Shown piece by piece: positions 3,832 through 22,727 of a stretch of DNA of 39,512 nucleotides. Location of the stretch: the IMG/VR virus record IMGVR_UViG_3300032288_002644, positions 1-39,512 of that record. The stretch is one strand, 5' to 3'. The number at the start of each line of letters is the position of its first letter. Positions within the stretch are counted from its first letter, which is position 1. Source of the DNA: a virus. The notes beneath the pieces were generated by a model that did not search any database, was not told the origin of the DNA, and was given only the letters and a program-made list of their open reading frames with translations. The position numbers were made by a program, and so were the translations under genes.

Positions 3832-4112
3832 ACAACAATCTTGCCGTCAATGATGTCGTGCAACGTGGCCCACACTTGCATGGACAGCGATGCGACAGCC
3901 TGACAGGCCACCATTTCACCGGCGGTCAACGTCCCCACATCATAGGAACGTTCGGCAAGCTCCAAAGTGTGCGCCGCAGCCAAAAACGCCACCTTGCACT
4001 CCTTGGGTGTGAGGAACACGCCTTGAGATTCGAGCGCGAACCGGGCTTGCGCCACCAACTGGTCGTTCCCCAGTCGGAGAACCGTACCCATCAAATCATC
4101 AACAACACTCAT
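3828..4112 (-). CDS. Small helical protein, 94 aa, unknown function
   Basis: The start is placed at the ATG at 4112, which overlaps the TGA of the upstream PP-loop gene (ATGA), rather than at the ATG eight codons further upstream. The protein is alpha-helical and Ala/Leu-rich (AFLAAAHTLELAER), with a hydrophobic C-terminus. It has no recognisable motif. Its place one gene before the probable small terminase makes a DNA-recognition or packaging role possible, and it could itself be the small terminase. The tight coupling on both sides supports it being a real gene. Confidence 0.6.
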   Translation of the reverse strand: MSVVDDLMGTVLRLGNDQLVAQARFALESQGVFLTPKECKVAFLAAAHTLELAERSYDVGTLTAGEMVACQAVASLSMQVWATLHDIIDGKIVV

Positions 4113-4918
4113 GTCCAACAATACCCTTCGTCGCATTTGCCTTCGTTGAACGTATCTTCGTCAAACAACGTCGGTCCGGCTTCTTGTGCCGCCTCATCTA
4201 GGGGCATTCTCTTGTCTGTAAGGTAGCAGGGAGCGCGGTCAAGGCTGGCTCGGACGGTGTTGATGTGGCGTTCCAGTTCAACGGACTTCCAAAACAGTTC
4301 GGGTTCATCTCGACGCATTTCCCGCCACGTCTGCAACCGGTGGAACGGACAGAAGAAACATGAGGACTTGGGCGGGACGGGCAGACCTGCATCTTTGATG
4401 ACCTGCATACAGGCCGTCCGATCTAGCCCAAGATCAAGCAGCGGGTATATGGGCTTCTCATGGGGGAGAGTTTTCTTGTTGTTGGCACGGTGGAACTCGT
4501 CGGTCGAGATGCCAATCATCACGTCAGCAGGCTCATCTTTTGTTGCTCCGTGCTGTTTGAGCCATTTGGCGACTACCGCCACCTTGTAGTCATAGGTGCA
4601 TGATCGGTTGCCAGGAGCGTTCGTTTCCGACATCCGCACCGGAATCTTGATTGACCGACTTCCTTCGCGAGTGATCTCATCCCACAGGGTACGGGTCGTG
4701 CCGTCTCGCATGGTGCGTTTCAGCTCTAAAACCTTTAGCCCTCGTTCGGCGGCCCACGGGATCGCAACATTTCGCACATACTCCAATGTCGCTGGATGTT
4801 CGCTGTCATCCCCAACATTCGAGAATAGGGCGGCGTCAACCGGACCTAGTTTGCCTTGAGCGGCCAGCACAACCAAAGCAGTTGATTGCACCCCGCCACC
4901 ATAAGAAATAACCCTCAC
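4109..4918 (-). CDS. PP-loop enzyme of the PAPS reductase / adenine nucleotide alpha-hydrolase type
   Basis: The start is GTG at 4918, seven bases after a strong GGAGG; the ATG 14 codons upstream has no such site. The protein opens directly with the PP-loop SYGGGVQST (residues 5-13), the pyrophosphate-binding motif of ATP- or PAPS-using enzymes. Cysteines at 107 (NRSCTYDYK) and in CFFCPFH (187-190) resemble the metal or Fe-S sites of the PAPS-reductase-like phage family and of DndC-type sulfur-transfer enzymes. It is the first gene of the packaging operon, facing the control region. Family-level knowledge allows sulfate reduction, nucleic-acid thiolation or base modification; the sequence does not decide between them. 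Confidence 0.75.
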   Translation of the reverse strand: MRVISYGGGVQSTALVVLAAQGKLGPVDAALFSNVGDDSEHPATLEYVRNVAIPWAAERGLKVLELKRTMRDGTTRTLWDEITREGSRSIKIPVRMSETNAPGNRSCTYDYKVAVVAKWLKQHGATKDEPADVMIGISTDEFHRANNKKTLPHEKPIYPLLDLGLDRTACMQVIKDAGLPVPPKSSCFFCPFHRLQTWREMRRDEPELFWKSVELERHINTVRASLDRAPCYLTDKRMPLDEAAQEAGPTLFDEDTFNEGKCDEGYCWT

Positions 4919-5466: not shown

Positions 5467-5531
5467 AAGCGCTCGAGCCGCCCACACCCCGGTTAGGGGG
5501 GCCAAAAAATACGGGAGATTGTAGTAGTAGA

Positions 5532-5582
5532 GGGGGGGTGGGGTCCCCCCGTGGGTGCATGGTGGGGGTGGGGTGGGGGTGG
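5532..5582 (+). other. G-quadruplex-prone G tract
   Basis: G runs of seven (5532-5538), four (5540-5543), three (5553-5555), five (5564-5568), four (5570-5573) and five (5575-5579) lie on the plus strand. The last three are separated by single T bases. Four runs of three or more with short loops meet the usual G-quadruplex pattern. A CCCCCC run at 5545-5550 could alternatively pair with a G run as a hairpin. The tract lies in the middle of the divergent hub. Confidence 0.6.
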
Positions 5583-5811
5583 TCACGGCACGGGCAGGGG
5601 TGGGGCATGGCGACGGGGTGACGCTGTCCGACACAGGTCGGGACGGGTGGCAAGGGGCTGGGGCATGGCTGGGCAGATTCGACCGACAGGGCAAGGGACT
5701 GCCGACTACGTCGGTCACCCTCTCGCCGTACCGGCTCGGGGTCTCGGCTCACCGGCGTACATTCCGACAGGGGTCTGCATGATTATGCGCCTAGGTGAAT
5801 CTTCATGAATT

Positions 5812-6203: not shown

Positions 6204-6238
6204 GCACTCCGACCACTCAGGTCGGTACAACGAAAGGA
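6204..6238 (+). promoter_or_regulatory. Hairpin plus ribosome-binding-site cassette, copy 1
   Basis: The cassette reads GCACTCCGACC, a five-base loop, GGTCGG, then ACAACGAAAGGA, and ends nine bases before the ATG of the next gene. CCGACC (6209-6214) pairs with GGTCGG (6220-6225). Copy 2 at 6834-6868 differs at only four positions, all in the loop or next to the stem. A degenerate copy without the stem precedes the first gene (CTCCGAC at 5851, CGAAAGGA ending at 5885). The hairpin stands just before the Shine-Dalgarno site, where it could set translation level. Confidence 0.6.
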
Positions 6239-6247
6239 CACCCGACC

Positions 6248-6781
6248 ATGACACCCGAACCCTGCGAACTCTGCGAAGAACCAGAAACGCTCTGCACCTG
6301 CTGGCGATGCATGGACTGCGAGACGCTCCACGTCGACGACGCCGATGCAATGGAGTCTGACACGGGCGAAATGGTGTGCCTCGGATGCTGGTCGGCGACC
6401 GATCCGACCGCCGTCGGCGACTGGGTCACGTTCCTGGTCGACGGAGACGGCGAACGCCTGACGGGTCGCGTCATCAAAACCAACGTCGCGGACGGACTGC
6501 CCGAACATTGGAGCGTCGCCGGAACGGAACCCGTCCACCACGTCGCCATCCCGAACAATGGAGTCTGGGCAATCCACCCGTCGTGCATCGTGGCCACGGG
6601 CGAAGACGCCGACAACTGCCCGACCGACTATATGATCAAAATCCGGTTCACCGCCAACCGTCCGCTCACCAAGGACGAACTCGACGACCTTGTGAATGCC
6701 GTGGCCGTGCAGATTGAAGAACCGCAGACCGACCACCACGACGCCACGTTCAGCACGTCCCACATCGTCGTCGACTACTGA
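6248..6781 (+). CDS. Cysteine-rich zinc-site protein, 177 aa, unknown function
   Basis: The N-terminal 47 residues hold many cysteines in pairs (CELC at 6-9, CTCWRCMDC at 16-24, CLGC at 44-47), consistent with two zinc-ribbon-like sites. The remainder looks like a beta-rich domain (WVTFLVDGDGERLTGRV, then WAIHPSCIV) ending in an acidic region and a beta-like tail. The start ATG follows CGAAAGGA with good spacing. A nucleic-acid-binding or host-takeover role is possible for such early phage zinc proteins, but nothing here fixes it. Both flanking intergenic stretches carry the repeated hairpin cassette. Confidence 0.6.
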   Translation: MTPEPCELCEEPETLCTCWRCMDCETLHVDDADAMESDTGEMVCLGCWSATDPTAVGDWVTFLVDGDGERLTGRVIKTNVADGLPEHWSVAGTEPVHHVAIPNNGVWAIHPSCIVATGEDADNCPTDYMIKIRFTANRPLTKDELDDLVNAVAVQIEEPQTDHHDATFSTSHIVVDY

Positions 6782-6788
6782 CCCCACC

Positions 6789-6868
6789 GCCTGCCCCATT
6801 CGTGGGCTTCGCGTCGGATCGAACCGACGGCAGGCACTCCGACCAATCCGGTCGGCACAACGAAAGGA
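6789..6868 (+). promoter_or_regulatory. Composite structured leader with hairpin/RBS cassette, copy 2
   Basis: GCCTGCC (6789-6795) pairs with GGCAGGC (6829-6835), enclosing a hairpin CGTCGG (6812-6817) / CCGACG (6824-6829). Downstream lies cassette copy 2 (6834-6868) with CCGACC (6839-6844) / GGTCGG (6850-6855) and CGAAAGGA. Because the two stems share GTCGG and CCGAC cores, they can swap partners, giving alternative folds before the ribosome-binding site. This is the kind of layout seen in attenuators or translational switches. Confidence 0.5.
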
Positions 6869-6877
6869 ACCCAACCC

Positions 6878-7309
6878 ATGAAACCCCAACCCCGCGAACG
6901 GTGGCTGATCAGTCACCCCGAGATGTTCGGCGTTCTTCACGCTGCCGACGCCATCGCCGTCGATCTAGACCAACTCACGCCCGAGCAGATCGATCAAGCC
7001 ATCAAAGCCGAAGACATGGGCTACATTCCCACCGACATTCTCGAAGCCGGTCACAATCTCGCCGACCTGATCGCCGACGGCCTGCGCTGGCGGGCCTACA
7101 TGGCCACGCCCCACAGCAAGAGCGACGACACCCGAAGCACCTACCTTTCATTTGATGACACAGTCCGATGCCCCGCCTGCGATCTCGCCGGAGATGGCCC
7201 CCGATGGATCGACCCCCGTACTGCGCTCGTCGTCCCGTGGGACGTGATGGGCGACCGTCGCCCGTACGCCCTGGTATGCCCCGAGCATGAAACGGAGGTG
7301 ACCCCGTGA
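6878..7309 (+). CDS. Zinc-site protein, 143 aa, unknown function
   Basis: The N-terminal half is acidic and helical (ADAIAVDLDQLTPEQIDQAI, residues about 24-43). The C-terminal half has CPAC (about residue 100) and CPEH (about 135), a plausible CCCH zinc site. The ATG follows CGAAAGGA and the hairpin cassette. Its stop overlaps the GTG start of the gp88-like gene, so the two are translationally coupled and may act together. I do not recognise the family. Confidence 0.6.
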   Translation: MKPQPRERWLISHPEMFGVLHAADAIAVDLDQLTPEQIDQAIKAEDMGYIPTDILEAGHNLADLIADGLRWRAYMATPHSKSDDTRSTYLSFDDTVRCPACDLAGDGPRWIDPRTALVVPWDVMGDRRPYALVCPEHETEVTP

Positions 7310-8716: not shown

Positions 8717-8785
8717 TGCTGTCCGGCCTCGAGTCGCCCGCCGAGGCTGGGTGTGGGAAGGTGACAGCGGGCATTCCACCAAAAA

Positions 8786-8821
8786 TTGTTGCGCTAACCC
8801 CCCTCCCGATAGGGTAAACAT
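8786..8821 (+). promoter_or_regulatory. Candidate promoter of the recombinase-like gene
   Basis: TTGTTG (8786-8791), an 18-base spacer and TAGGGT (8810-8815) give a weak sigma-70-type promoter; TAAACAT overlaps just downstream. Either box would start the RNA at or within a few bases of the ATG at 8827. With no Shine-Dalgarno site visible, a leaderless or nearly leaderless mRNA is likely, which is common in actinobacteria. Confidence 0.35.
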
Positions 8822-8826
8822 TACTT

Positions 8827-9723
8827 ATGCCGACTATTCGCACCGTGACAGCCAACTTTCTGGGTTCCTACGCCTCGACTCACACCCGGAAGAGATACAA
8901 GAAAGACATCGTGACGTGGCAACGATGGTGCGCCGATCATGGCGTACATCCTCTCGACTGCTCTGCCGAGAACGCACAACGGTTCGCAGATTGGATGTCG
9001 GCGAACTACACGCCCACCAGCGTGGCCTCGAGGGTGTGCGGCGTCACGAAATGGTTCGATGCCCTAGTAGATGCCCGTATTCTGAAGTCGCATGGCTTGC
9101 ATTCGGTTCGTCTCCCGAAGCGTTCGGTGCAGTTGAACCCTGATGCGATCCCGTCGGACGCTGACATGATGCTGGTAATGGCCGAGGCTGCCGAGCTTGG
9201 CCCCCGCTGGGAATGGCTCGCAGGCATGGTGGCGTGGGCTGGCTGCGACTGTCAGGAGGCTCTCAGGGTTCGTGGCATGGACGTGCGAACATGGGAAGGT
9301 AAGACGCTGGTGACGGTGCGCTCCCGTAAAGGGAACCGGCGTGAGATACCGGTCGATGGCCGTCTCGAGGTGCTGACCGTCGGTCTACAGGCCGTGTACG
9401 CCTCTCATACGCCTCTCGCAGGCACCGTGACCTCCGAATGGGCGACGATCAAACTGGGCGAGGTGGCATCGCGCGCGGTCGGACGACGCTTGAACGTGCA
9501 GGACATGAGACGTTGGGCTGTCCGGCGTCAGCATGAGCGCGGTGTCCCCGTTCCGATCATCGCCAAGTGGCTCGGGCATACGACCGACCGTTGGGTGCGT
9601 CAGACGTTGCGCTTGACCGATGCGGTGGCCGAGGTGACTGCCGCCGACGTGATCTCGAGCATCCTGGTTGAGCCGGACGGCGACCGGTTCGGTTCTGGTC
9701 AGGCTCCCGACTCGATTATTTGA
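8827..9723 (+). CDS. Tyrosine-recombinase-like protein with missing catalytic residues, 298 aa
   Basis: The N-terminal 90 residues look like the SAM-like core-binding domain of phage integrases (YKKDIVTWQRWCADHG, then SVASRVCGVTKWFDAL). The C-terminal part aligns with the catalytic domain: AGCDCQEALRVRGMDV against the usual TGLRisELlaLrwsDi, SRKGNRREIPV, NVQDMRRWAVRRQHERG against HdLRHtfat, and KWLGHTTD. In this alignment Arg I is Asp, the His of the HxLR box is Gln, and the nucleophilic Tyr position (RQTLRLT) is Thr; Lys, Arg II and the LGH His remain. It may therefore bind DNA without cutting it. Its end overlaps the convergent minus-strand gene by eight bases. A real but divergent active site cannot be ruled out by eye. 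Confidence 0.75.
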   Translation: MPTIRTVTANFLGSYASTHTRKRYKKDIVTWQRWCADHGVHPLDCSAENAQRFADWMSANYTPTSVASRVCGVTKWFDALVDARILKSHGLHSVRLPKRSVQLNPDAIPSDADMMLVMAEAAELGPRWEWLAGMVAWAGCDCQEALRVRGMDVRTWEGKTLVTVRSRKGNRREIPVDGRLEVLTVGLQAVYASHTPLAGTVTSEWATIKLGEVASRAVGRRLNVQDMRRWAVRRQHERGVPVPIIAKWLGHTTDRWVRQTLRLTDAVAEVTAADVISSILVEPDGDRFGSGQAPDSII

Positions 9724-9889
9724 ACCAGCGTCGCAGGAACCACAGTACGACCGCTGCACAGGTGGCGTACAACGTCAGAAAGTAGATGATGTCGATTGCT
9801 TTCTGCACGAAACGCTCCTGTTCGGGGGTCAACGTCTGCACCCGTGGTGCCACTCTAATTTCGTCAGCGACGTTATTCGGTCTGTTCAC
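9716..9889 (-). CDS. Small C-terminally anchored membrane protein, 57 aa
   Basis: The start is GTG at 9889, overlapping the methyltransferase stop (GTGA) with AGGAG upstream; the longer frame is a shadow within the methyltransferase gene. The first 35 residues are polar, and residues about 36-53 (IIYFLTLYATCAAVVLWFL) form one membrane segment followed by the basic end RRWFK, as in tail-anchored proteins. It is the last gene of the early operon and converges on the recombinase-like gene. Function unknown. Confidence 0.6.
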   Translation of the reverse strand: MNRPNNVADEIRVAPRVQTLTPEQERFVQKAIDIIYFLTLYATCAAVVLWFLRRWFK

Positions 9890-11664
9890 AGCACTCTCCT
9901 GACGTGTTGGCCCACCCATCGGGCCACCGGACTGGCGACAGCGTTCCCACATTGCTTGTACCGGTGCGTGTCGGCCTGCTCTTTGCCTTCGTCGGTCCAG
10001 CGGGTGTGGTCGTCGGGGAATCCCATCAGACGCTCGCACTCGAGGGGCGTCAGGCGGCGTACTGCCATCGTGGTGGCGATGGACGGAGACTGCTGGAATG
10101 CCTTCAGGGTTGGCGACTGGTCCACGAACACGTTCGCGTTGGATCCGAACTGCGTGTCAAACGAGTATGGCTGCGCAATGTGCGGTTCGTTGTCCCCGCG
10201 CTTGGCCTCGGCCCGTAGCGTCGGCACTTGATCCTGCCAGACACCACCGCCGAGCCGGACCATCGTCCCTGGCTGGAACACGGTGACAGGCTCGGCCACC
10301 ATCGGTACCTGTCCACCGCCGGTCCCCATGCGCTGTTTCAAGGTCGGGACAATCTCGGTGTCCATGCGGAAGTCGTCGTGCCGAGTTCCGTCGAAAATGA
10401 TCGGTTGGGCTACTGCTTGCGCCCCCGTTCTATCGAGGGTGTAGGACGGTGAACCTGCATCTCCGACGCCGAATCCGTTCTGGTTCTTTTCCATCTCCCG
10501 TCCATCTTGAATCGGGATCGGTTCAGCGATGAAAAGTTGGGCGTGATGTGATTGGGGCGACGGAACCAACCCGTTGAGGCATAGTGCGGTGTCGGTTTCG
10601 GTCGCGCTAAACGTGTTGGCTTTGGCATCTTCTCGCACCGAATAGGCGACGGGCATAAGGACGGTGGCCCGTGATTCGCCGCCGTTGTCAAAAGCGTTGA
10701 GGGTTGGCGCGGTTTCGGTGGCTTCCCAACGGTCGTCGTCGGTGTTGCTCATCGCACGTTTCGCTTTCACGAACGGGATGACAGCCAAGTCTGTCGCGTC
10801 TTTGTAGTCGCGTTGCTTCAGGGCAGAGGCGGTGTCGTCGGCGGTGTAGTGGCCGAATCCCAGCATTCGATACCCTTCGCCACTTCCATCAACGACCATG
10901 TTGTAGTGTTCCGATCCGCTGGGGCCACCCGAACCTTTTGCCCATTTGGAGCAGATGGATGTTGCTAGGGTGTCGTCGGCGGTTGATCCTGCGGCCCATT
11001 GGCCACTTGCATCAAGGCTTGCCTGAGCATCTCCGGTAGCACCTTGCCCCTTCGCTCTGCCCTTCGCAAAATCCCTTGGGCGGCCTTCGCAGACAGGTAG
11101 TAGCGGGCCGTCACATCGGTCGGCGGTTGCAGGATCAAAGATAGCGACGAGGAAGATGCGCCTCCGTCGCTGGGGAACTCCGAAGTGTTGTGCGTCCAGC
11201 ACAGACCATTGGATGTCCACCGCCCCGATGTCCCCCAACGCTTCGAGGACGGCTTGGAAGTCTTCGCCGTTGTTGCTGGAGAGTGCGCCGGGGACGTTCT
11301 CCCAGATGACGGCTCTTGGAACAGAGCCAGTTGGTCGGGATGCTGTTGCATCTCTCATCTCCTTGATGATTCGTGTTGCTTCAAAGAACATGGAACTACG
11401 ACCGCCGTCAAGGCCGGCTCGTTTACCGGCGACGGACAAGTCTTGACAGGGGGAGCCGAAGAAGATCACGTCCGCTTCGGGTAGATCATGGCCGGACACT
11501 TCGCACACGTCGCCCCACTTCGGTACGTCGGGCCAATGCCGTCGAAGAATGGACTGGCAATGCTTATCCCATTCCACCTGGAACACGCACTCAAACCCTG
11601 CCTGCTCCATTCCGAGGTCAGCACCGCCGACACCTGCGAACAAACTGCCGAACGTGAGTGTCAT
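9886..11664 (-). CDS. DNA (cytosine-5-) methyltransferase with a long repeat-bearing recognition region, 592 aa
   Basis: The enzyme transfers a methyl group from S-adenosylmethionine to C5 of cytosine in DNA. Motif I is FAGVGGADLG (9-18), motif IV GSPCQDLS with the nucleophile Cys73, motif VI ENV (122-124), motif VIII QRRRR (165-169), and motifs IX-X RLTPLECERLMGF (537-549) and NAVASPVARWVG (574-585). All are intact. Between motifs VIII and IX lie about 360 residues, far more than in a single-target enzyme, with recurring PTL-type units (TAPTL 318-322, IVPTL 438-442, QVPTL 479-483, QSPTL 516-520, plus SYTL at 407-410). No partner restriction enzyme is seen, so the likely role is protecting phage DNA from host restriction. 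Confidence 0.93.
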   Translation of the reverse strand: MTLTFGSLFAGVGGADLGMEQAGFECVFQVEWDKHCQSILRRHWPDVPKWGDVCEVSGHDLPEADVIFFGSPCQDLSVAGKRAGLDGGRSSMFFEATRIIKEMRDATASRPTGSVPRAVIWENVPGALSSNNGEDFQAVLEALGDIGAVDIQWSVLDAQHFGVPQRRRRIFLVAIFDPATADRCDGPLLPVCEGRPRDFAKGRAKGQGATGDAQASLDASGQWAAGSTADDTLATSICSKWAKGSGGPSGSEHYNMVVDGSGEGYRMLGFGHYTADDTASALKQRDYKDATDLAVIPFVKAKRAMSNTDDDRWEATETAPTLNAFDNGGESRATVLMPVAYSVREDAKANTFSATETDTALCLNGLVPSPQSHHAQLFIAEPIPIQDGREMEKNQNGFGVGDAGSPSYTLDRTGAQAVAQPIIFDGTRHDDFRMDTEIVPTLKQRMGTGGGQVPMVAEPVTVFQPGTMVRLGGGVWQDQVPTLRAEAKRGDNEPHIAQPYSFDTQFGSNANVFVDQSPTLKAFQQSPSIATTMAVRRLTPLECERLMGFPDDHTRWTDEGKEQADTHRYKQCGNAVASPVARWVGQHVRRVL

Positions 11665-16793: not shown

Positions 16794-17160
16794 CGTCTGC
16801 TCCTTGCACGACGAGCCTCAACCCGTCCACTCCGTCTACTACTGGTGCATGGAAGTCTATACGAACGAGGATGTCGGGGGTGTCGTCTTCGATCACACCG
16901 GCGTCGACCAGCCCATCAATCCCAGCTTTGGCGGCAGGGAAGCAGGCGGCAACATCTTGTGGGGATCGTCCGTTCTTGTGCAGGGGGATGACGCTGACAT
17001 ACAGGCGTTCGTGGGCTGGGATGCCAGCCTCTTCTGCACACCGCCGGAACTGGTCACGCCACCATTTGGTGTCGGACGCCCGTTTGCCCCAACTGTTGGT
17101 CTTGCGTTCCTGGTTGAGGGTGGTGGGACGTTTGCCGACGACTTCTAAAGCCCAGATCAT
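16777..17160 (-). CDS. RusA-like Holliday junction resolvase (probable), 127 aa
   Basis: RusA-type enzymes cut four-way DNA junctions using a cluster of Asp residues. Here RSPQDVAACFPAAKAGIDGLVDAGVIEDD (residues about 65-93) reproduces the family pattern, in which Asp precedes a helix ending in K-x-x-(I/L)DGL and an exposed DD. The N-terminal W, K and R residues fit the basic DNA-binding half. The length is typical. It lies behind the virion genes rather than with the early recombination genes, so it may clear branched DNA before packaging. Confidence 0.6.
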   Translation of the reverse strand: MIWALEVVGKRPTTLNQERKTNSWGKRASDTKWWRDQFRRCAEEAGIPAHERLYVSVIPLHKNGRSPQDVAACFPAAKAGIDGLVDAGVIEDDTPDILVRIDFHAPVVDGVDGLRLVVQGADDEPDV

Positions 17161-20100
17161 GGGTTGATTCTAGACAGAATCCGTTCGCGTTCTCTGCGCT
17201 GTTGGGCTTCGATGTCTTTGATGCTTTGCAGGGTGGCTTGCTCGTAGGCAACGTCTTGCTCGATGATCGGACGTGGGAGACCGAACGTGCCGAACAGACC
17301 GCCGAGACGACTGGCGACGGGTCCGAGGCGTTGAACAGAGTACGGGCCGGTTGTTCGTGCCGAACCTTGAGGGAAGCGTTGCACGTTGCCCAAAGCCACG
17401 TCTGTGCCAGGGATACGACTGCCGGTCGGGCCGTAGGTCAGGATGTTGCGGAACGGGCCACCGAACGTGGTCAGTCCGGCATAGCCAATTTCGCCGACGA
17501 AGTCGCCGAGGCTTCGGGTTGTTGCCGACTGTCGACCCTCAAGGTAGCCGGGACGTTGCACATCTGAACCAGGGAATGGAACCTGCACACCACCGCCGTA
17601 GTACAGGATCGCATTAGCGACCTTCGCTGGGAAGGCGATAGCCGGTGAAACTGACATAGCCTGCTCGCCAACAGCTCGAATCGGGTTCGGCTGGAACAGC
17701 AACGCATCCTGATACGGGTTCAGGAACGACAGGTCAAAGAAGAAGCCGAGCGCGGGAACGGTGCCTTCGAGGAACTGGAACAGTCCTTCCTGCTCCGGCG
17801 ATGTTGCAATAGAGCCGAGGGCAGCAGCGAACAGGACACGATCAGGCGAGTCAATCGCCATCTTTGCTGCCGCCTTGTTGATGTAGCGGAGCCACGACCA
17901 GAAGGGGTAGATGTTTCGCGCCACGTTCTTCTCAAACGGGCTGAGTTCGGTGAACGCTCCGAGCGCATCGTTAGTTTCACGGACAGCCTTGTTGACTGCA
18001 TCACGAATCTCAGCGTCGTCAATGTAGTTATACGGTGTCACCTCATCAAGAGTGCGACCCTTGGCTGTGAGCGTCTGTTCCAGTTTGTACATGGCGGTGG
18101 CGGCTCGGGCAACCGTGTTCTGGTATTCGTTGAACCGGAACGACTTCTCACGGAAACCAGGGAACATTTGGAATCCCCGTGTGTCACGCAAACCGGGGAT
18201 CGGGCCTCGAAGTTGATAGTCGGCGATGGCTGCCCGAGGGTTCAGTCCTCGCATCTGCTGAATGTCAAAGTCACGCACACCTCGAGCCTGAAGTCCGGCT
18301 CCGAGCAGGGTGCTGATCAGCGTGTTGGGAACGCTTCCACGAAGTGCGTCCAATCGTTTTGCGCTTGATGTCAACAAGGCGTCTACGGCCATCATTCGCT
18401 GGATGAGTTCTGCCGGTGGAACTTCACCTCGCGCCCAACCATTTAGGACGTTTGAGACGAGGTCGCCGACTTGCCAGCGAGCCGAGAATGGCAACACCGT
18501 CGCTTTCCATCCGCTCGTCACTTTGCCGATGCTGTCGTTGACGGTTTGGATAATTGGGTTCTTTGACGCACTATCTCGAGGTACGAACTGCTGAGTCAAA
18601 TTTTCGCGCAAGCCGATACGCATCAGGATCGTGTTGGGGTCAACCAGTTCGTCAAGAACAGTAACCATCAGGTCACCCAACGCCTCATGTGCGCCCGTCT
18701 CAGGGTCAACCTTGACTGGGCTGATCGGCTCGTAGCCTGCACGACGGGCGATCTCTGCCAGTCGAATGCCAACCTGCTTGCGAACCTCGGTCTCAATCTG
18801 TCCAGGGGTACGAATCAAGCCTTGCTGTTCAACTTGCTGTTGCGCTTCCTCGGTGATCGCCTTCAAAGTTTCCGCATCCACCAAACGAGACATGGTGATC
18901 GAGAACCGAGGGTCGGTGACAATGTCCTCAAGAATCTTGTTACGACCGACGACGTTGAAGATTTCGTCGAAGCGTTTGATCATGTCGTCCAACCGCAACG
19001 GCATCAGGTCGGAGGTTCGCATCTGTTCCACCGGCGACTTCACCTGTGGGGCGGCACCTTCGCTTCGTAGTTCGGTCATTACTCGCGTCGCACCACGGGC
19101 TGTCGTTGGCAGACCAGCAGGCAGATAGCCGACCTGTGATTCGGGGCCGAGCAACTGTGGCCCGAACGGTTGCGCCATGTAACGCTCCACCGCTGTGGCA
19201 CCGGCACGAACATCAGTAATACCTTGCGCCAAAGCGACATCGGTTTCGTACTGCTGGCGAATCTCAGCGAGCTTGTTCTGCTGGTACAGGTCTTTGTTCC
19301 GCAGTTGCTCAATCTCACCCTCAGCCTTGGTCTGCGGACCTTTGAGCATCTGCCCTTCGACGGTTCCGTCCGGCTGGTCGACGATCTTGCCGACACCTTT
19401 CAGTCGGGCGCGTACGACACGACGCTGTTCGGCTGTTCCTTCACGGCGCAAACGTGCAACCGTCTGCTCTTGCTTGGTGACATCACGGTCAGCACGGCGC
19501 AGGTTCTCGAGCAGTTCCTTCGGGATCGGGATCAGCCGGGGTGTCGCACCTTCGTACGGTACGCCTGTCTCCATTTCGGTGACGAAACGGTCACGCAAAC
19601 GCAGATCGGCGGTCAGCAGGTTCGGGTTGGTGATGTACGCAATTGTTCTTGCAAGCAACGGAAGCGAGTAACCGGATGTTTCGAAATCTTGACGGTCACG
19701 GCTGCGATTCATTTCATCAGCAACTTCGTACAGCCGAAGTTTCTTGATCTGCTTTAGTTTCTGTTCAGCCAAATGAACTTGGGCGTATGCCTCTAGGTAT
19801 GACGACCATTCGTCGGCCTTTGCCGTGCTTCCCGATGACCTTGGTCCTTGCGGAACGTCTGCTCGCTCCCCCGCCGTCGTGTCCAACCCTACTGTCCGCT
19901 TTATTTGAACCCAGTCGTCAATGCCGTCGGCACCAACACCTCTGTCGTTTTGAATGTTGTATGGGTCGTAGTCATAAACAAACTGGTTGCCCCACATATC
20001 GGCGAGCAATTCGGCTTCTTCAAGCCTCATGTATCGACCAAACTCGTTGATGACCATGTCACGCACGGTCATGCCACTCATGTTTGTATCCCTAGCCCAT

Positions 20101-22727
20101 GCATTCCAACTAATTACTGGGCCAGTTTGATAATCATTTTCAAGTCTGCCGAAATGTAAATCTAGAACTTCTTGAGCCTGACGAATCATTTCAACGTGGG
20201 CAGCTTTGACCTCTTTGCTTCGATTTGTATATGGCTTGGGAACGGCGGCCGTTGGGTCAACTTTGCCAGATTCAACTTGTTGACGACGAAAGTCGTACTC
20301 ATCAACAAGTGTTGCGAGATTGTCCTGATACTCAAGGCTTTCTGCCAAACGCACAGCCTGGTCAATCTCGTCCACGATGACTTGACGTTCGTCGGGGGTC
20401 AACGCCATCTCGTTCTCTCGAGTGGTGCGCTCGTACTGGGCGATCGCATCCTGAACCGTCTGACGTTGCTGTTCCGACAGTCGCAGGTTTGCCTGTGCCT
20501 CGGTAACGCCAGCAAGGTCTTCGTCGCTGATGCGGTTCAGGTTGTCCACCAACGCACGGATGGTTTGCTGGGTTGCGCTCAACGCCTGCTCGGCTTCGAT
20601 CAACTGGGTGATGAGCGCACGGTTCTCGGCGGTCAGAGTGTCGCCGCGAGCCTGTAGATCGGCGATGCGTTCCTGAACGCGGGCCAGCAACGAGTCGGTC
20701 TTGCGAATGATGTTCCTGTACGAACCGGGCAGATACGCCGACGGAGTACCAACCAGCCGATCAAGGTCACCACGAATGGATTCGACGGTCTTCTTGCCCA
20801 ACAGGTCGCCGTATTGGTCGGCCAGATCATTGAGTCCGGCGACGATGGTGGCGATGTCTTCGCTTCTGGCGGTAGCCAACACCCGGTTCTCGGCCATGAC
20901 AAGCGGTCGCAATTGCGCTGGATAGATGTTCGCCGAACGCATGACATTGGGGAATGTCTGCAACAGTTGCGAATACGCCAGTTCAAACATTTGTTGGGCG
21001 ACGCCTGCCAGCGGATGATCTGCGCCGACTTCTGCCAAAGCACGGAACGCTCCGAACGGATTCTTAGCCGTGTACTTGGCGAACTCTTTCCGCAGTTCGG
21101 GTGGCAACGTGTCCAAGAATTGGACGGCAATATCGTCCATTGCCGTCAAAAGACGACGCACCTCGAGATACGGTAGACCGTTGCGATCAAACTCGTAGAA
21201 CAGAAACTCCACGACGGGCATACGACCGACGTAGGTTCCCGGCATCGGGCCACCGAGACGGTATTCGCCCGACAACTGTCCTCGAGTGAAGTCGTCACCG
21301 ATGCGCGTGTAGAACTGCATGACAGCGTCAACAGATTGGCGACCGAACTTGTCAATCGTTCCCTGAACATAGTCAACTGCATTCTGAATGTCGGCCGGGG
21401 TGAAGGAGTAGCCGATGCGCTCAAGGTCGGGGCCGACCTGTGTTGGTGTCATTTCGGCAGCGATGTCAGCGACAGACTGGCCGTTAGCCACTTCTCGCAT
21501 GATCAGTTCAATTCGACCCGTGCGGATCAGGTTGGCGACAGGTCCGGCATAGTCCGGCATCGGGCCAGCCTCAGCATCAGGGAACACAGCACTCGGTCCG
21601 AGCGTCTTGAGCCGTGATGCTTCGGTGACAATGTTTGTACGACGTGCCTCTTCGTACAACTGGTCGGTGTAAATCTTCTTGCGAGCATCTGTGATAACAC
21701 CAGCGCGACCCAATGCTCGACGCAACTGGTTCTTCAGATCATCAATTTCAACCTTGATTGCTGCGGCGTCAGCGTTCGGTTCATACAGGCGAGCGTCAGC
21801 GTCGGCGAGTTGGGCAACCAACCGTTGCACGTCGGCTGCACCTCGCGCTCGTTTCAGGTCAATGGCTTCGGTGACAGCCTGACGCAACGGGCCGACACCG
21901 TCAGTCACGCCTGCTTGGGCGATACGACCGAGGCGTGTTCCTGCACCGACCGCACCGACACTCTCGGCACCGAGCTGTCCGGCTCGAGCAGTACCACGCG
22001 CCAAAGTTCCGATTGGTTCTTCAACGAAACGTCCGGTAGTTGCAACCACCCGACCGAGACGTGGTGCGCCAGCCTTGCTGATTGCAGCACCACCACGCCC
22101 GATGACGTTTCCGGCACCAGCACCACGGCCAAGTAAAACAATGTTGCCAAGGTCTTCTAATGCGAGCGCACCAAGGTTGCCTTCGCGCCATGCCGTTGCG
22201 TAGTCAATGCCAGGTTGACCGTAATCAAACTTTCCGGCTGTCAGGAGTTCGCCTGCCCGGCCACCAGTTGTCTGAACACTTCGTCCTATTTCGGCTGCCA
22301 ACGGGAACTGGCGATGTCCGGCATACCAAATCAGGTCTGTACCTGACAGCCCCATCGCACGACCGCGGGCAAGATCGGTTTCAAGGCGCGACGTGTACGG
22401 GTCTTTGCCAGTAATCGCCTCAACACCCTCGGATGCTAGATCGACTGCACCTTCAAGCAGACCGCCGCCGGTTTGCAATGCTTTGCCAACAAACACGGGT
22501 GCTTGGGCGATCATGCCAGCGGTAAAACGAATTGGCGATGTGATCAGGTTGCTGATGATCCCGCCGCCACCATCGTCGTCTTTCTTCTTATTTGTATTTC
22601 CTTCATAGACGGCTCGTTTTGACGGCGGCAAAAGTCGAGGTCCACCAATAGTTGTTCCCGAAGGTGACGGTGGTTGGGCAACTTGGCTGCGGTATGCACC
22701 AAGCAGATCATCTGCGGTCATACTCAT
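17157..22727 (-). CDS. Giant internal virion (ejection) protein, 1856 aa
   Basis: At 5.57 kb this gene is 14 percent of the genome. The N-terminal region has amphipathic or hydrophobic stretches (residues about 57-105, and a Gly/Ala-rich part near 180-225). The middle is long and helical, Gln/Arg/Glu-rich. Near residues 1597-1612 lies FEKNVARNIYPFWSWLRYI, a block seen near the ends of other giant podovirus ejection or polyvalent proteins. Together with the adaptor and nozzle genes this suggests a protein injected with the DNA to build a channel. A tape-measure protein is the alternative, but no tail-tube genes are present. Codon and base use shift in the middle (see findings). Confidence 0.65.
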   Translation of the reverse strand: MSMTADDLLGAYRSQVAQPPSPSGTTIGGPRLLPPSKRAVYEGNTNKKKDDDGGGGIISNLITSPIRFTAGMIAQAPVFVGKALQTGGGLLEGAVDLASEGVEAITGKDPYTSRLETDLARGRAMGLSGTDLIWYAGHRQFPLAAEIGRSVQTTGGRAGELLTAGKFDYGQPGIDYATAWREGNLGALALEDLGNIVLLGRGAGAGNVIGRGGAAISKAGAPRLGRVVATTGRFVEEPIGTLARGTARAGQLGAESVGAVGAGTRLGRIAQAGVTDGVGPLRQAVTEAIDLKRARGAADVQRLVAQLADADARLYEPNADAAAIKVEIDDLKNQLRRALGRAGVITDARKKIYTDQLYEEARRTNIVTEASRLKTLGPSAVFPDAEAGPMPDYAGPVANLIRTGRIELIMREVANGQSVADIAAEMTPTQVGPDLERIGYSFTPADIQNAVDYVQGTIDKFGRQSVDAVMQFYTRIGDDFTRGQLSGEYRLGGPMPGTYVGRMPVVEFLFYEFDRNGLPYLEVRRLLTAMDDIAVQFLDTLPPELRKEFAKYTAKNPFGAFRALAEVGADHPLAGVAQQMFELAYSQLLQTFPNVMRSANIYPAQLRPLVMAENRVLATARSEDIATIVAGLNDLADQYGDLLGKKTVESIRGDLDRLVGTPSAYLPGSYRNIIRKTDSLLARVQERIADLQARGDTLTAENRALITQLIEAEQALSATQQTIRALVDNLNRISDEDLAGVTEAQANLRLSEQQRQTVQDAIAQYERTTRENEMALTPDERQVIVDEIDQAVRLAESLEYQDNLATLVDEYDFRRQQVESGKVDPTAAVPKPYTNRSKEVKAAHVEMIRQAQEVLDLHFGRLENDYQTGPVISWNAWARDTNMSGMTVRDMVINEFGRYMRLEEAELLADMWGNQFVYDYDPYNIQNDRGVGADGIDDWVQIKRTVGLDTTAGERADVPQGPRSSGSTAKADEWSSYLEAYAQVHLAEQKLKQIKKLRLYEVADEMNRSRDRQDFETSGYSLPLLARTIAYITNPNLLTADLRLRDRFVTEMETGVPYEGATPRLIPIPKELLENLRRADRDVTKQEQTVARLRREGTAEQRRVVRARLKGVGKIVDQPDGTVEGQMLKGPQTKAEGEIEQLRNKDLYQQNKLAEIRQQYETDVALAQGITDVRAGATAVERYMAQPFGPQLLGPESQVGYLPAGLPTTARGATRVMTELRSEGAAPQVKSPVEQMRTSDLMPLRLDDMIKRFDEIFNVVGRNKILEDIVTDPRFSITMSRLVDAETLKAITEEAQQQVEQQGLIRTPGQIETEVRKQVGIRLAEIARRAGYEPISPVKVDPETGAHEALGDLMVTVLDELVDPNTILMRIGLRENLTQQFVPRDSASKNPIIQTVNDSIGKVTSGWKATVLPFSARWQVGDLVSNVLNGWARGEVPPAELIQRMMAVDALLTSSAKRLDALRGSVPNTLISTLLGAGLQARGVRDFDIQQMRGLNPRAAIADYQLRGPIPGLRDTRGFQMFPGFREKSFRFNEYQNTVARAATAMYKLEQTLTAKGRTLDEVTPYNYIDDAEIRDAVNKAVRETNDALGAFTELSPFEKNVARNIYPFWSWLRYINKAAAKMAIDSPDRVLFAAALGSIATSPEQEGLFQFLEGTVPALGFFFDLSFLNPYQDALLFQPNPIRAVGEQAMSVSPAIAFPAKVANAILYYGGGVQVPFPGSDVQRPGYLEGRQSATTRSLGDFVGEIGYAGLTTFGGPFRNILTYGPTGSRIPGTDVALGNVQRFPQGSARTTGPYSVQRLGPVASRLGGLFGTFGLPRPIIEQDVAYEQATLQSIKDIEAQQRRERERILSRINP

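What the first reader, a model, noticed from the sequence alone, without database searches (positions are those of the whole stretch)
8827..9723. An integrase-like protein that appears to have lost its nucleophile
The protein keeps the two-domain layout of phage tyrosine recombinases, but by alignment with the family blocks Arg I is Asp, the His of HxLR is Gln and the Tyr position is Thr. Arg II, the Lys and the LGH His remain. Half of the active site is gone while the fold seems intact, so it is not a decaying pseudogene. A domesticated recombinase that only binds DNA (partition, origin, repression, or blocking other integrases) would be a new kind of phage factor. It has its own promoter and a near-leaderless mRNA.
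Basis: partly seen in the sequence, partly recalled or inferred. Interest (0 to 1): 0.72.

Follow-up and report, generated by a model that had tools for sequence, protein, structure and literature searches.

The report
Catalytically dead phage integrase, conserved
A group of related actinobacterial phages, none with a detectable working integrase, all keep a gene for a protein shaped like an integrase but without its cutting residues; it has probably become a DNA-binding regulator, as also happened with the repressor of Bacillus phage SPbeta.

Summary
ORF 8827-9723 (298 aa) is a tyrosine-recombinase-fold protein with Arg I→Asp141, box-II His→Gln225 and nucleophile→Thr260; no tyrosine occurs after residue 191. 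It is not a one-off: 26 IMG/VR contigs and one Acidimicrobiales MAG contig encode relatives 50-98% identical. All have Asp/Glu at Arg I; all but one truncated row also have Gln at the His and Thr/Val at the nucleophile. dN/dS is 0.03-0.13. The window is a circularly closed ~39.4-kb genome; it and 12 relatives have no tyrosine- or serine-recombinase match above cut-off. A sister clade has no integrase-like gene. Upstream of the gene, CTGGGTGTGGG (8747-8757) is single-copy in each of 11 genomes and absent from three sister genomes. A weaker GCGTGC-type element beside it may recur once, ~3 kb away, before the first + strand gene. Best reading: a domesticated recombinase acting as a DNA-binding (auto)regulator. 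This has a precedent (MrpR/YopR of SPbeta; SroF of phi3T), so it is not a new kind of factor, but the family is unrelated to MrpR by sequence and has also lost the tyrosine. DNA binding and regulation are inferred, not shown.

The parts
8827..9723 (+). dead tyrosine-recombinase-like protein, 298 aa (SAM-like core-binding domain ~1-100, catalytic-fold domain ~105-279, conserved low-confidence tail 280-298)
9247..9249 (+). codon 141: Asp in place of Arg I (Asp or Glu in every relative)
9499..9501 (+). codon 225: Gln in place of box-II His (invariant)
9508..9510 (+). codon 228: Arg II retained (invariant)
9577..9579 (+). codon 251: His of the LGH box retained (invariant)
9604..9606 (+). codon 260: Thr in place of the Tyr nucleophile (Thr, or Val in L027/L028)
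8747..8757 (+). near-invariant CTGGGTGTGGG element, one copy per genome, in all 11 genomes tested that carry the gene and in none of the 3 sister genomes
8766..8780 (+). GCGTGC-type element S2 (AGCGGGCATTCCACC); partly or fully duplicated as a direct repeat in most relatives outside the window's own subclade
8780..8788 (+). A/T-rich element CAAAAATTG at a nearly fixed distance from CTGGGTGTGGG
8810..8820 (+). -10 region TAGGGTAAACA of a near-leaderless promoter
5754..5768 (+). candidate second site S1 (GGCGTACATTCCGAC), about 90 nt before the first + strand gene (5860); syntenic copy in 10 of 11 genomes examined
   Evidence: found after the fact; suggestive

Best explanation
It is a tyrosine-recombinase-fold protein that has lost catalysis and been kept as a sequence-specific DNA-binding regulator. 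Shown here: the family-wide loss of Arg I, His and Tyr; the predicted fold; purifying selection; the absence of any detectable recombinase in these genomes; and a near-invariant single-copy cis-element upstream of the gene. Inferred: the protein binds that element (CTGGGTGTGGG plus the GCGTGC-type and A/T-rich elements) to control its own near-leaderless promoter, and possibly also the first promoter of the + strand cluster through the similar site at 5754. The acidic residue at Arg I (Asp/Glu in every relative) would repel the scissile phosphate or pair with the retained Arg II, so the pocket could bind DNA without cutting.
For: Catalytic substitutions shared by every relative down to 50% identity. 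dN/dS 0.03-0.13, C-terminal domain included. Same fold predicted for two members about 50% identical. Strongest family match is to actinobacterial integrases (hhalign 99.6%). Protein is basic, pI 9.5, N-domain 9.95. No PF00589 above cut-off and no PF00239 in 13 genomes, with positive controls ringing. Gene present in all 12 close terminase relatives with enough flank, absent from the sister clade. CTGGGTGTGGG one per genome, always before the gene; a collection scan found it 71-104 nt before the ORF in 18 family contigs, nearly all other hits looking like chance matches. Precedent: MrpR of SPbeta, a dead recombinase-fold repressor that binds DNA (PMC10516654).
Against: No DNA-binding or expression data. 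Unlike MrpR with its ten binding peaks over the prophage, only one firm site and one tentative second site were found. The S1-S2 similarity was found after the fact and is weak in some genomes (fraction of genome stretches as good: 0.0025 to 0.59). The cis-element could be read by another protein or be a promoter, origin or RNA feature. No other lysogeny gene was recognised, so a lysogeny repressor has no obvious job.
Confidence: 0.52

Rival explanations
1. It is an architectural or replication/partition factor: it binds the single cis-region upstream of its gene (direct repeats, A/T-rich stretch, invariant 11-mer), which acts as an origin or centromere-like site rather than an operator.
For: Single-copy, complex cis-region with lineage-specific direct repeats at 24-54 nt period next to A/T-rich DNA; one copy per genome.
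Against: No ParA-type ATPase (PF13614) in 7 genomes; no replication initiator linked to it; only one or two repeats per site; sister phages do without the region.
Confidence: 0.17
2. It is a competitor: it occupies core sites of host XerC/XerD or of other phages' integrases and blocks integration or dimer resolution.
For: Same domain layout as Xer/Cre-type recombinases without an arm-binding domain; tyrosine recombinases act as tetramers, so a dead subunit could poison a complex (general knowledge).
Against: The conserved cis-element lies in the phage's own genome next to the gene; no host target known; no evidence of co-occurrence with competitors.
Confidence: 0.12
3. It is still part of a recombination system: a non-catalytic partner that recruits host XerC/D or another recombinase to a phage attachment site upstream of the gene.
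For: attP sites often lie beside int genes, and phages using host Xer enzymes are known (both general knowledge); a unique conserved site is there.
Against: No integrated copy found in a scan of 84,980 species genomes; the single hit is a 5.2-kb contig in a MAG. No catalytic residues of its own. The upstream region lacks paired inverted arms of a core site in nearly all rows.
Confidence: 0.09
4. It is a decaying integrase gene on the way to loss.
For: The catalytic residues are gone and no other lysogeny gene (HTH_3 repressor, ParA) was found.
Against: Intact ORF in every relative with the full gene, dN/dS 0.03-0.13, invariant residues throughout, synteny kept over large divergence.
Confidence: 0.02

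Closest known systems
MrpR (YopR), master repressor of Bacillus phage SPbeta (PDB 8A0A; PMC10516654)
   Same: Phage-encoded tyrosine-recombinase fold with Arg I and box-II His replaced (V/S and N in MrpR; D and Q here); reported to have lost recombinase function and to bind DNA as a regulator.
   Different: No detectable sequence relation (hhalign probability 0.2%). MrpR keeps Tyr304 and Lys169; here the Tyr is Thr/Val. MrpR has ten binding peaks over the prophage; here one firm and one tentative site. SPbeta is temperate with a serine integrase; in these phages no integrase was found.
SroF of phage phi3T (PDB 9rd5, 9rgl)
   Same: Repressor with the same fold, solved bound to DNA (Z 14.7, rmsd 5.7, 247 residues aligned).
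   Different: Known to me only from entry titles; Bacillus phage; no sequence comparison made.
Tyrosine integrases of Gordonia and Arthrobacter phages (e.g. Bunker gp34, Hestia gp36)
   Same: Among the best sequence matches, same domain order, similar size.
   Different: They keep R, K, H, R, H and a Tyr. The dead family forms its own clade on a long stem.
UniProt A0A6J7WYJ5, 'DNA_BRE_C domain containing protein', uncultured Caudovirales phage
   Same: 70% identical member of the family already in databases.
   Different: Named only as a recombinase-type domain protein; no function assigned.

Membership tests
Tyrosine recombinase superfamily (fold) | SAM-like core-binding domain plus catalytic-domain fold | tested here: met
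   PF02899 over cut-off, PHROG_1 6e-12, AF2 models of two members and Z 16-19 to XerA/Cre/lambda Int
Active tyrosine recombinase/integrase | Catalytic Arg I | tested here: not met
   Asp or Glu in all rows
Active tyrosine recombinase/integrase | Box-II His | tested here: not met
   Gln225 invariant
Active tyrosine recombinase/integrase | Tyr nucleophile | tested here: not met
   Thr or Val; no Tyr after residue 191 in the window protein
Active tyrosine recombinase/integrase | Beta-hairpin Lys | tested here: inconclusive
   R167/K168 depending on a one-residue gap; Arg-Arg in most relatives
Active tyrosine recombinase/integrase | Arg II and the His/Trp III position | tested here: met
   R228 and H251 invariant
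MrpR/YopR repressor family | Sequence homology to MrpR | tested here: not met
   hhalign 0.2%; HMM E-value 1.2 in a small reference set
MrpR/YopR repressor family | Catalytically incompetent active site in a recombinase fold | tested here: met
   MrpR Table 3 in PMC10516654
MrpR/YopR repressor family | Many operators dispersed over the phage genome | tested here: not met
   CTGGGTGTGGG one copy per genome; GCGTGC-type site one firm plus one tentative place
MrpR/YopR repressor family | Maintains lysogeny, binds DNA | not testable with these tools
   needs experiment

The most novel reading that the evidence does not exclude
The dead recombinase keeps the synapsis habit of its ancestors: bound at S2 (8766) and S1 (5754), it joins the two sites into one complex and loops out the variable ~3-kb + strand segment, switching both flanking promoters. 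It would be a recombinase turned into a DNA-looping regulator in phages with no detectable integrase.
Probability: 0.1. Interest if true: 0.75.

Novelty: new variant of a known kind. Interest (0 to 1): 0.5.

Why it matters
[quoted passage not shown] It also warns that integrase-type annotations, used to call phages temperate, can mislead: these genomes carry an integrase-like gene but no detectable integrase. The near-invariant cis-element gives a direct binding target.

Tried and rejected
Looked for a genome-wide operator as in SPbeta: CTGGGTGTGGG occurs once per genome, and 11-mers shared by all genomes gave in intergenic DNA only this one, the block AAAAATACGGGA and a CGCAACATGGA before gene 5860. 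Looked for a displaced Tyr: none. Looked for an active integrase elsewhere: none above cut-off. Looked for canonical repressors (HTH_3) and ParA: none. tRNA or Rfam features as an attachment-site clue: none. Tested MrpR homology directly: none. Host genomes: one MAG contig only; samples of Acidimicrobiia and of its phylum otherwise gave only distant recombinases, and the three placed in the tree alignment keep the catalytic residues. Plasmids: only distant matches, nearly all annotated as recombinases. Papers on SroF: none held.

Full report
OBSERVATION. The ORF at 8827-9723 exists, has phage-like codon use while the antisense ORFs do not, and encodes a 298-aa protein matched by PHROG_1 integrase (E 6e-12) and the Pfam SAM-like integrase domain. 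Aligned with XerD and actinobacterial integrases, Arg I is D141, box-II His is Q225, Arg II is R228, the LGH His is H251 and the nucleophile position is T260. The only tyrosines are at 15, 24, 61 and 191, so no alternative nucleophile sits in the C-terminal part. The Lys claim is uncertain: R167 or K168 in the window, Arg-Arg in most relatives.

FAMILY. Scans of IMG/VR with the protein and with alignments found 26 contigs, plus a 5.2-kb contig binned with an Acidimicrobiales MAG. In every one Arg I is Asp (Glu in L027/L028). In every one that reaches these positions the His is Gln and the nucleophile is Thr (Val in L027/L028); the partial contig L030 ends at residue 222. Pairwise dN/dS is 0.03-0.13 for the closer pairs, with the C-terminal domain about as constrained as the N-terminal one (NG86, distant pairs saturated). 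AlphaFold predicts the same fold for two members about 50% identical, with XerA, Cre and lambda Int among the nearest solved structures. This is a conserved dead enzyme, not a decaying gene.

GENOME. The window has a 123-base terminal repeat, read here as a circularly closed genome of about 39.4 kb; relatives G003 and G009 and sister genomes S016 and S017 also have end repeats. In the window and 12 relatives no match to PF00589 reaches cut-off (weak sub-threshold matches in 11 relatives, in open frames of about 300 codons like the dead gene's) and PF00239 is absent, while control genomes ring. No HTH_3 repressor or AAA_31 ParA in seven of them. The phage carries terminase, portal, major head protein, tail, endolysin, RecT, exonuclease, RusA, WhiB and a cytosine methyltransferase; WhiB and the MAG suggest an actinobacterial host. 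Among terminase relatives at 80% identity or more with enough flank, all 12 carry the gene; seven at about 70-73% do not, and whole-record searches of those found no integrase-like protein. The gene sits in a + strand segment, usually next to a GP88-like gene.

CIS-ELEMENT. Between the preceding gene and the dead integrase lies CTGGGTGTGGG (8747-8757), present exactly once in each of 11 genomes, always upstream of this gene, and absent from the three sister genomes; one of the 23 aligned upstream regions, L023, differs by a single base. It is followed by a GCGTGC-type element, repeated in most relatives outside the window's subclade, and an A/T-rich element. A collection-wide scan for CTGGGTGTGGG-N16..30-AAAAWWTT returned 18 contigs with the gene, all with the site 71-104 nt before the open frame. 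One more (L164) looks like a family contig cut at its end. The remaining hits look like chance matches, many in A/T-rich DNA; a rough estimate of mine, assuming some 50 billion bases, is about 20 by chance. The scan also met one further family member, L175/L191, found again. A position matrix of the GCGTGC-type element then pointed to a second syntenic site before the first + strand gene (window 5754). It is seen in 10 of 11 genomes; none was found in G009, and in G011 (read by eye, ATGCTTCCCGAC) it resembles that genome's own upstream copy (ATGCGTCCCGAC). Because this second site was chosen by similarity, the per-genome control (0.0025-0.59 of genome stretches as good) makes it suggestive only.

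MECHANISM. A basic, recombinase-fold protein without catalytic residues, conserved along its whole length, next to a near-invariant site, is most simply a DNA-binding regulator of its own promoter and perhaps of the + strand cluster. The constant acidic residue at Arg I may pair with Arg II (inference; no coordinates examined).

KNOWN. MrpR of SPbeta is a repressor with recombinase fold that lost catalysis (PMC10516654, read), and SroF of phi3T appears among the structural matches. By sequence this family is unrelated to MrpR and closest to actinobacterial integrases. In the tree it is one clade on a long stem; its exact origin is unresolved and long branches are flagged. So the kind is known; the lineage, the loss of the tyrosine, the setting in phages without a detectable integrase and the cis-element were not found described in the papers searched.

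Noticed in passing
window 5505-5548: Conserved noncoding block AAAAATACGGGA followed by a G-rich inverted repeat (GGGGGGGTGGGGTCCCCCC); the block is present in all 11 dead-integrase genomes and absent from three sister genomes; no Rfam match.
   Followed up: partly
window 6204-6269 and 6834-6899: 66-nt repeat (83%) spanning the starts of two neighbouring + strand genes, each copy with a CCGACC-N5-GGTCGG-type dyad.
   Followed up: no
window 9886-11664, - strand: C5 cytosine methyltransferase of 592 aa whose Pfam match is split into two stretches, suggesting a large insert; the gene is present in some relatives and absent in others.
   Followed up: no
window 9664-9720 (residues 280-298 of the protein): C-terminal tail VEPDGDRFGSG-APDS has low model confidence yet is well conserved across relatives; may be a contact peptide.
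   Followed up: no
L115/L118 (Gordonia phage Bunker), L117 (EMsquaredA), L214 (Arthrobacter phage Hestia): Each of these phages carries two genes annotated as tyrosine integrase close together; only the first was examined here, and it keeps its catalytic residues.
   Followed up: partly
window 17157-22727, - strand: Giant 1856-aa protein that diverges much faster than many of its neighbours between relatives.
   Followed up: no
window 4109-4876, - strand: PAPS-reductase-like gene (PHROG_424) with no match in any of the relatives compared.
   Followed up: no
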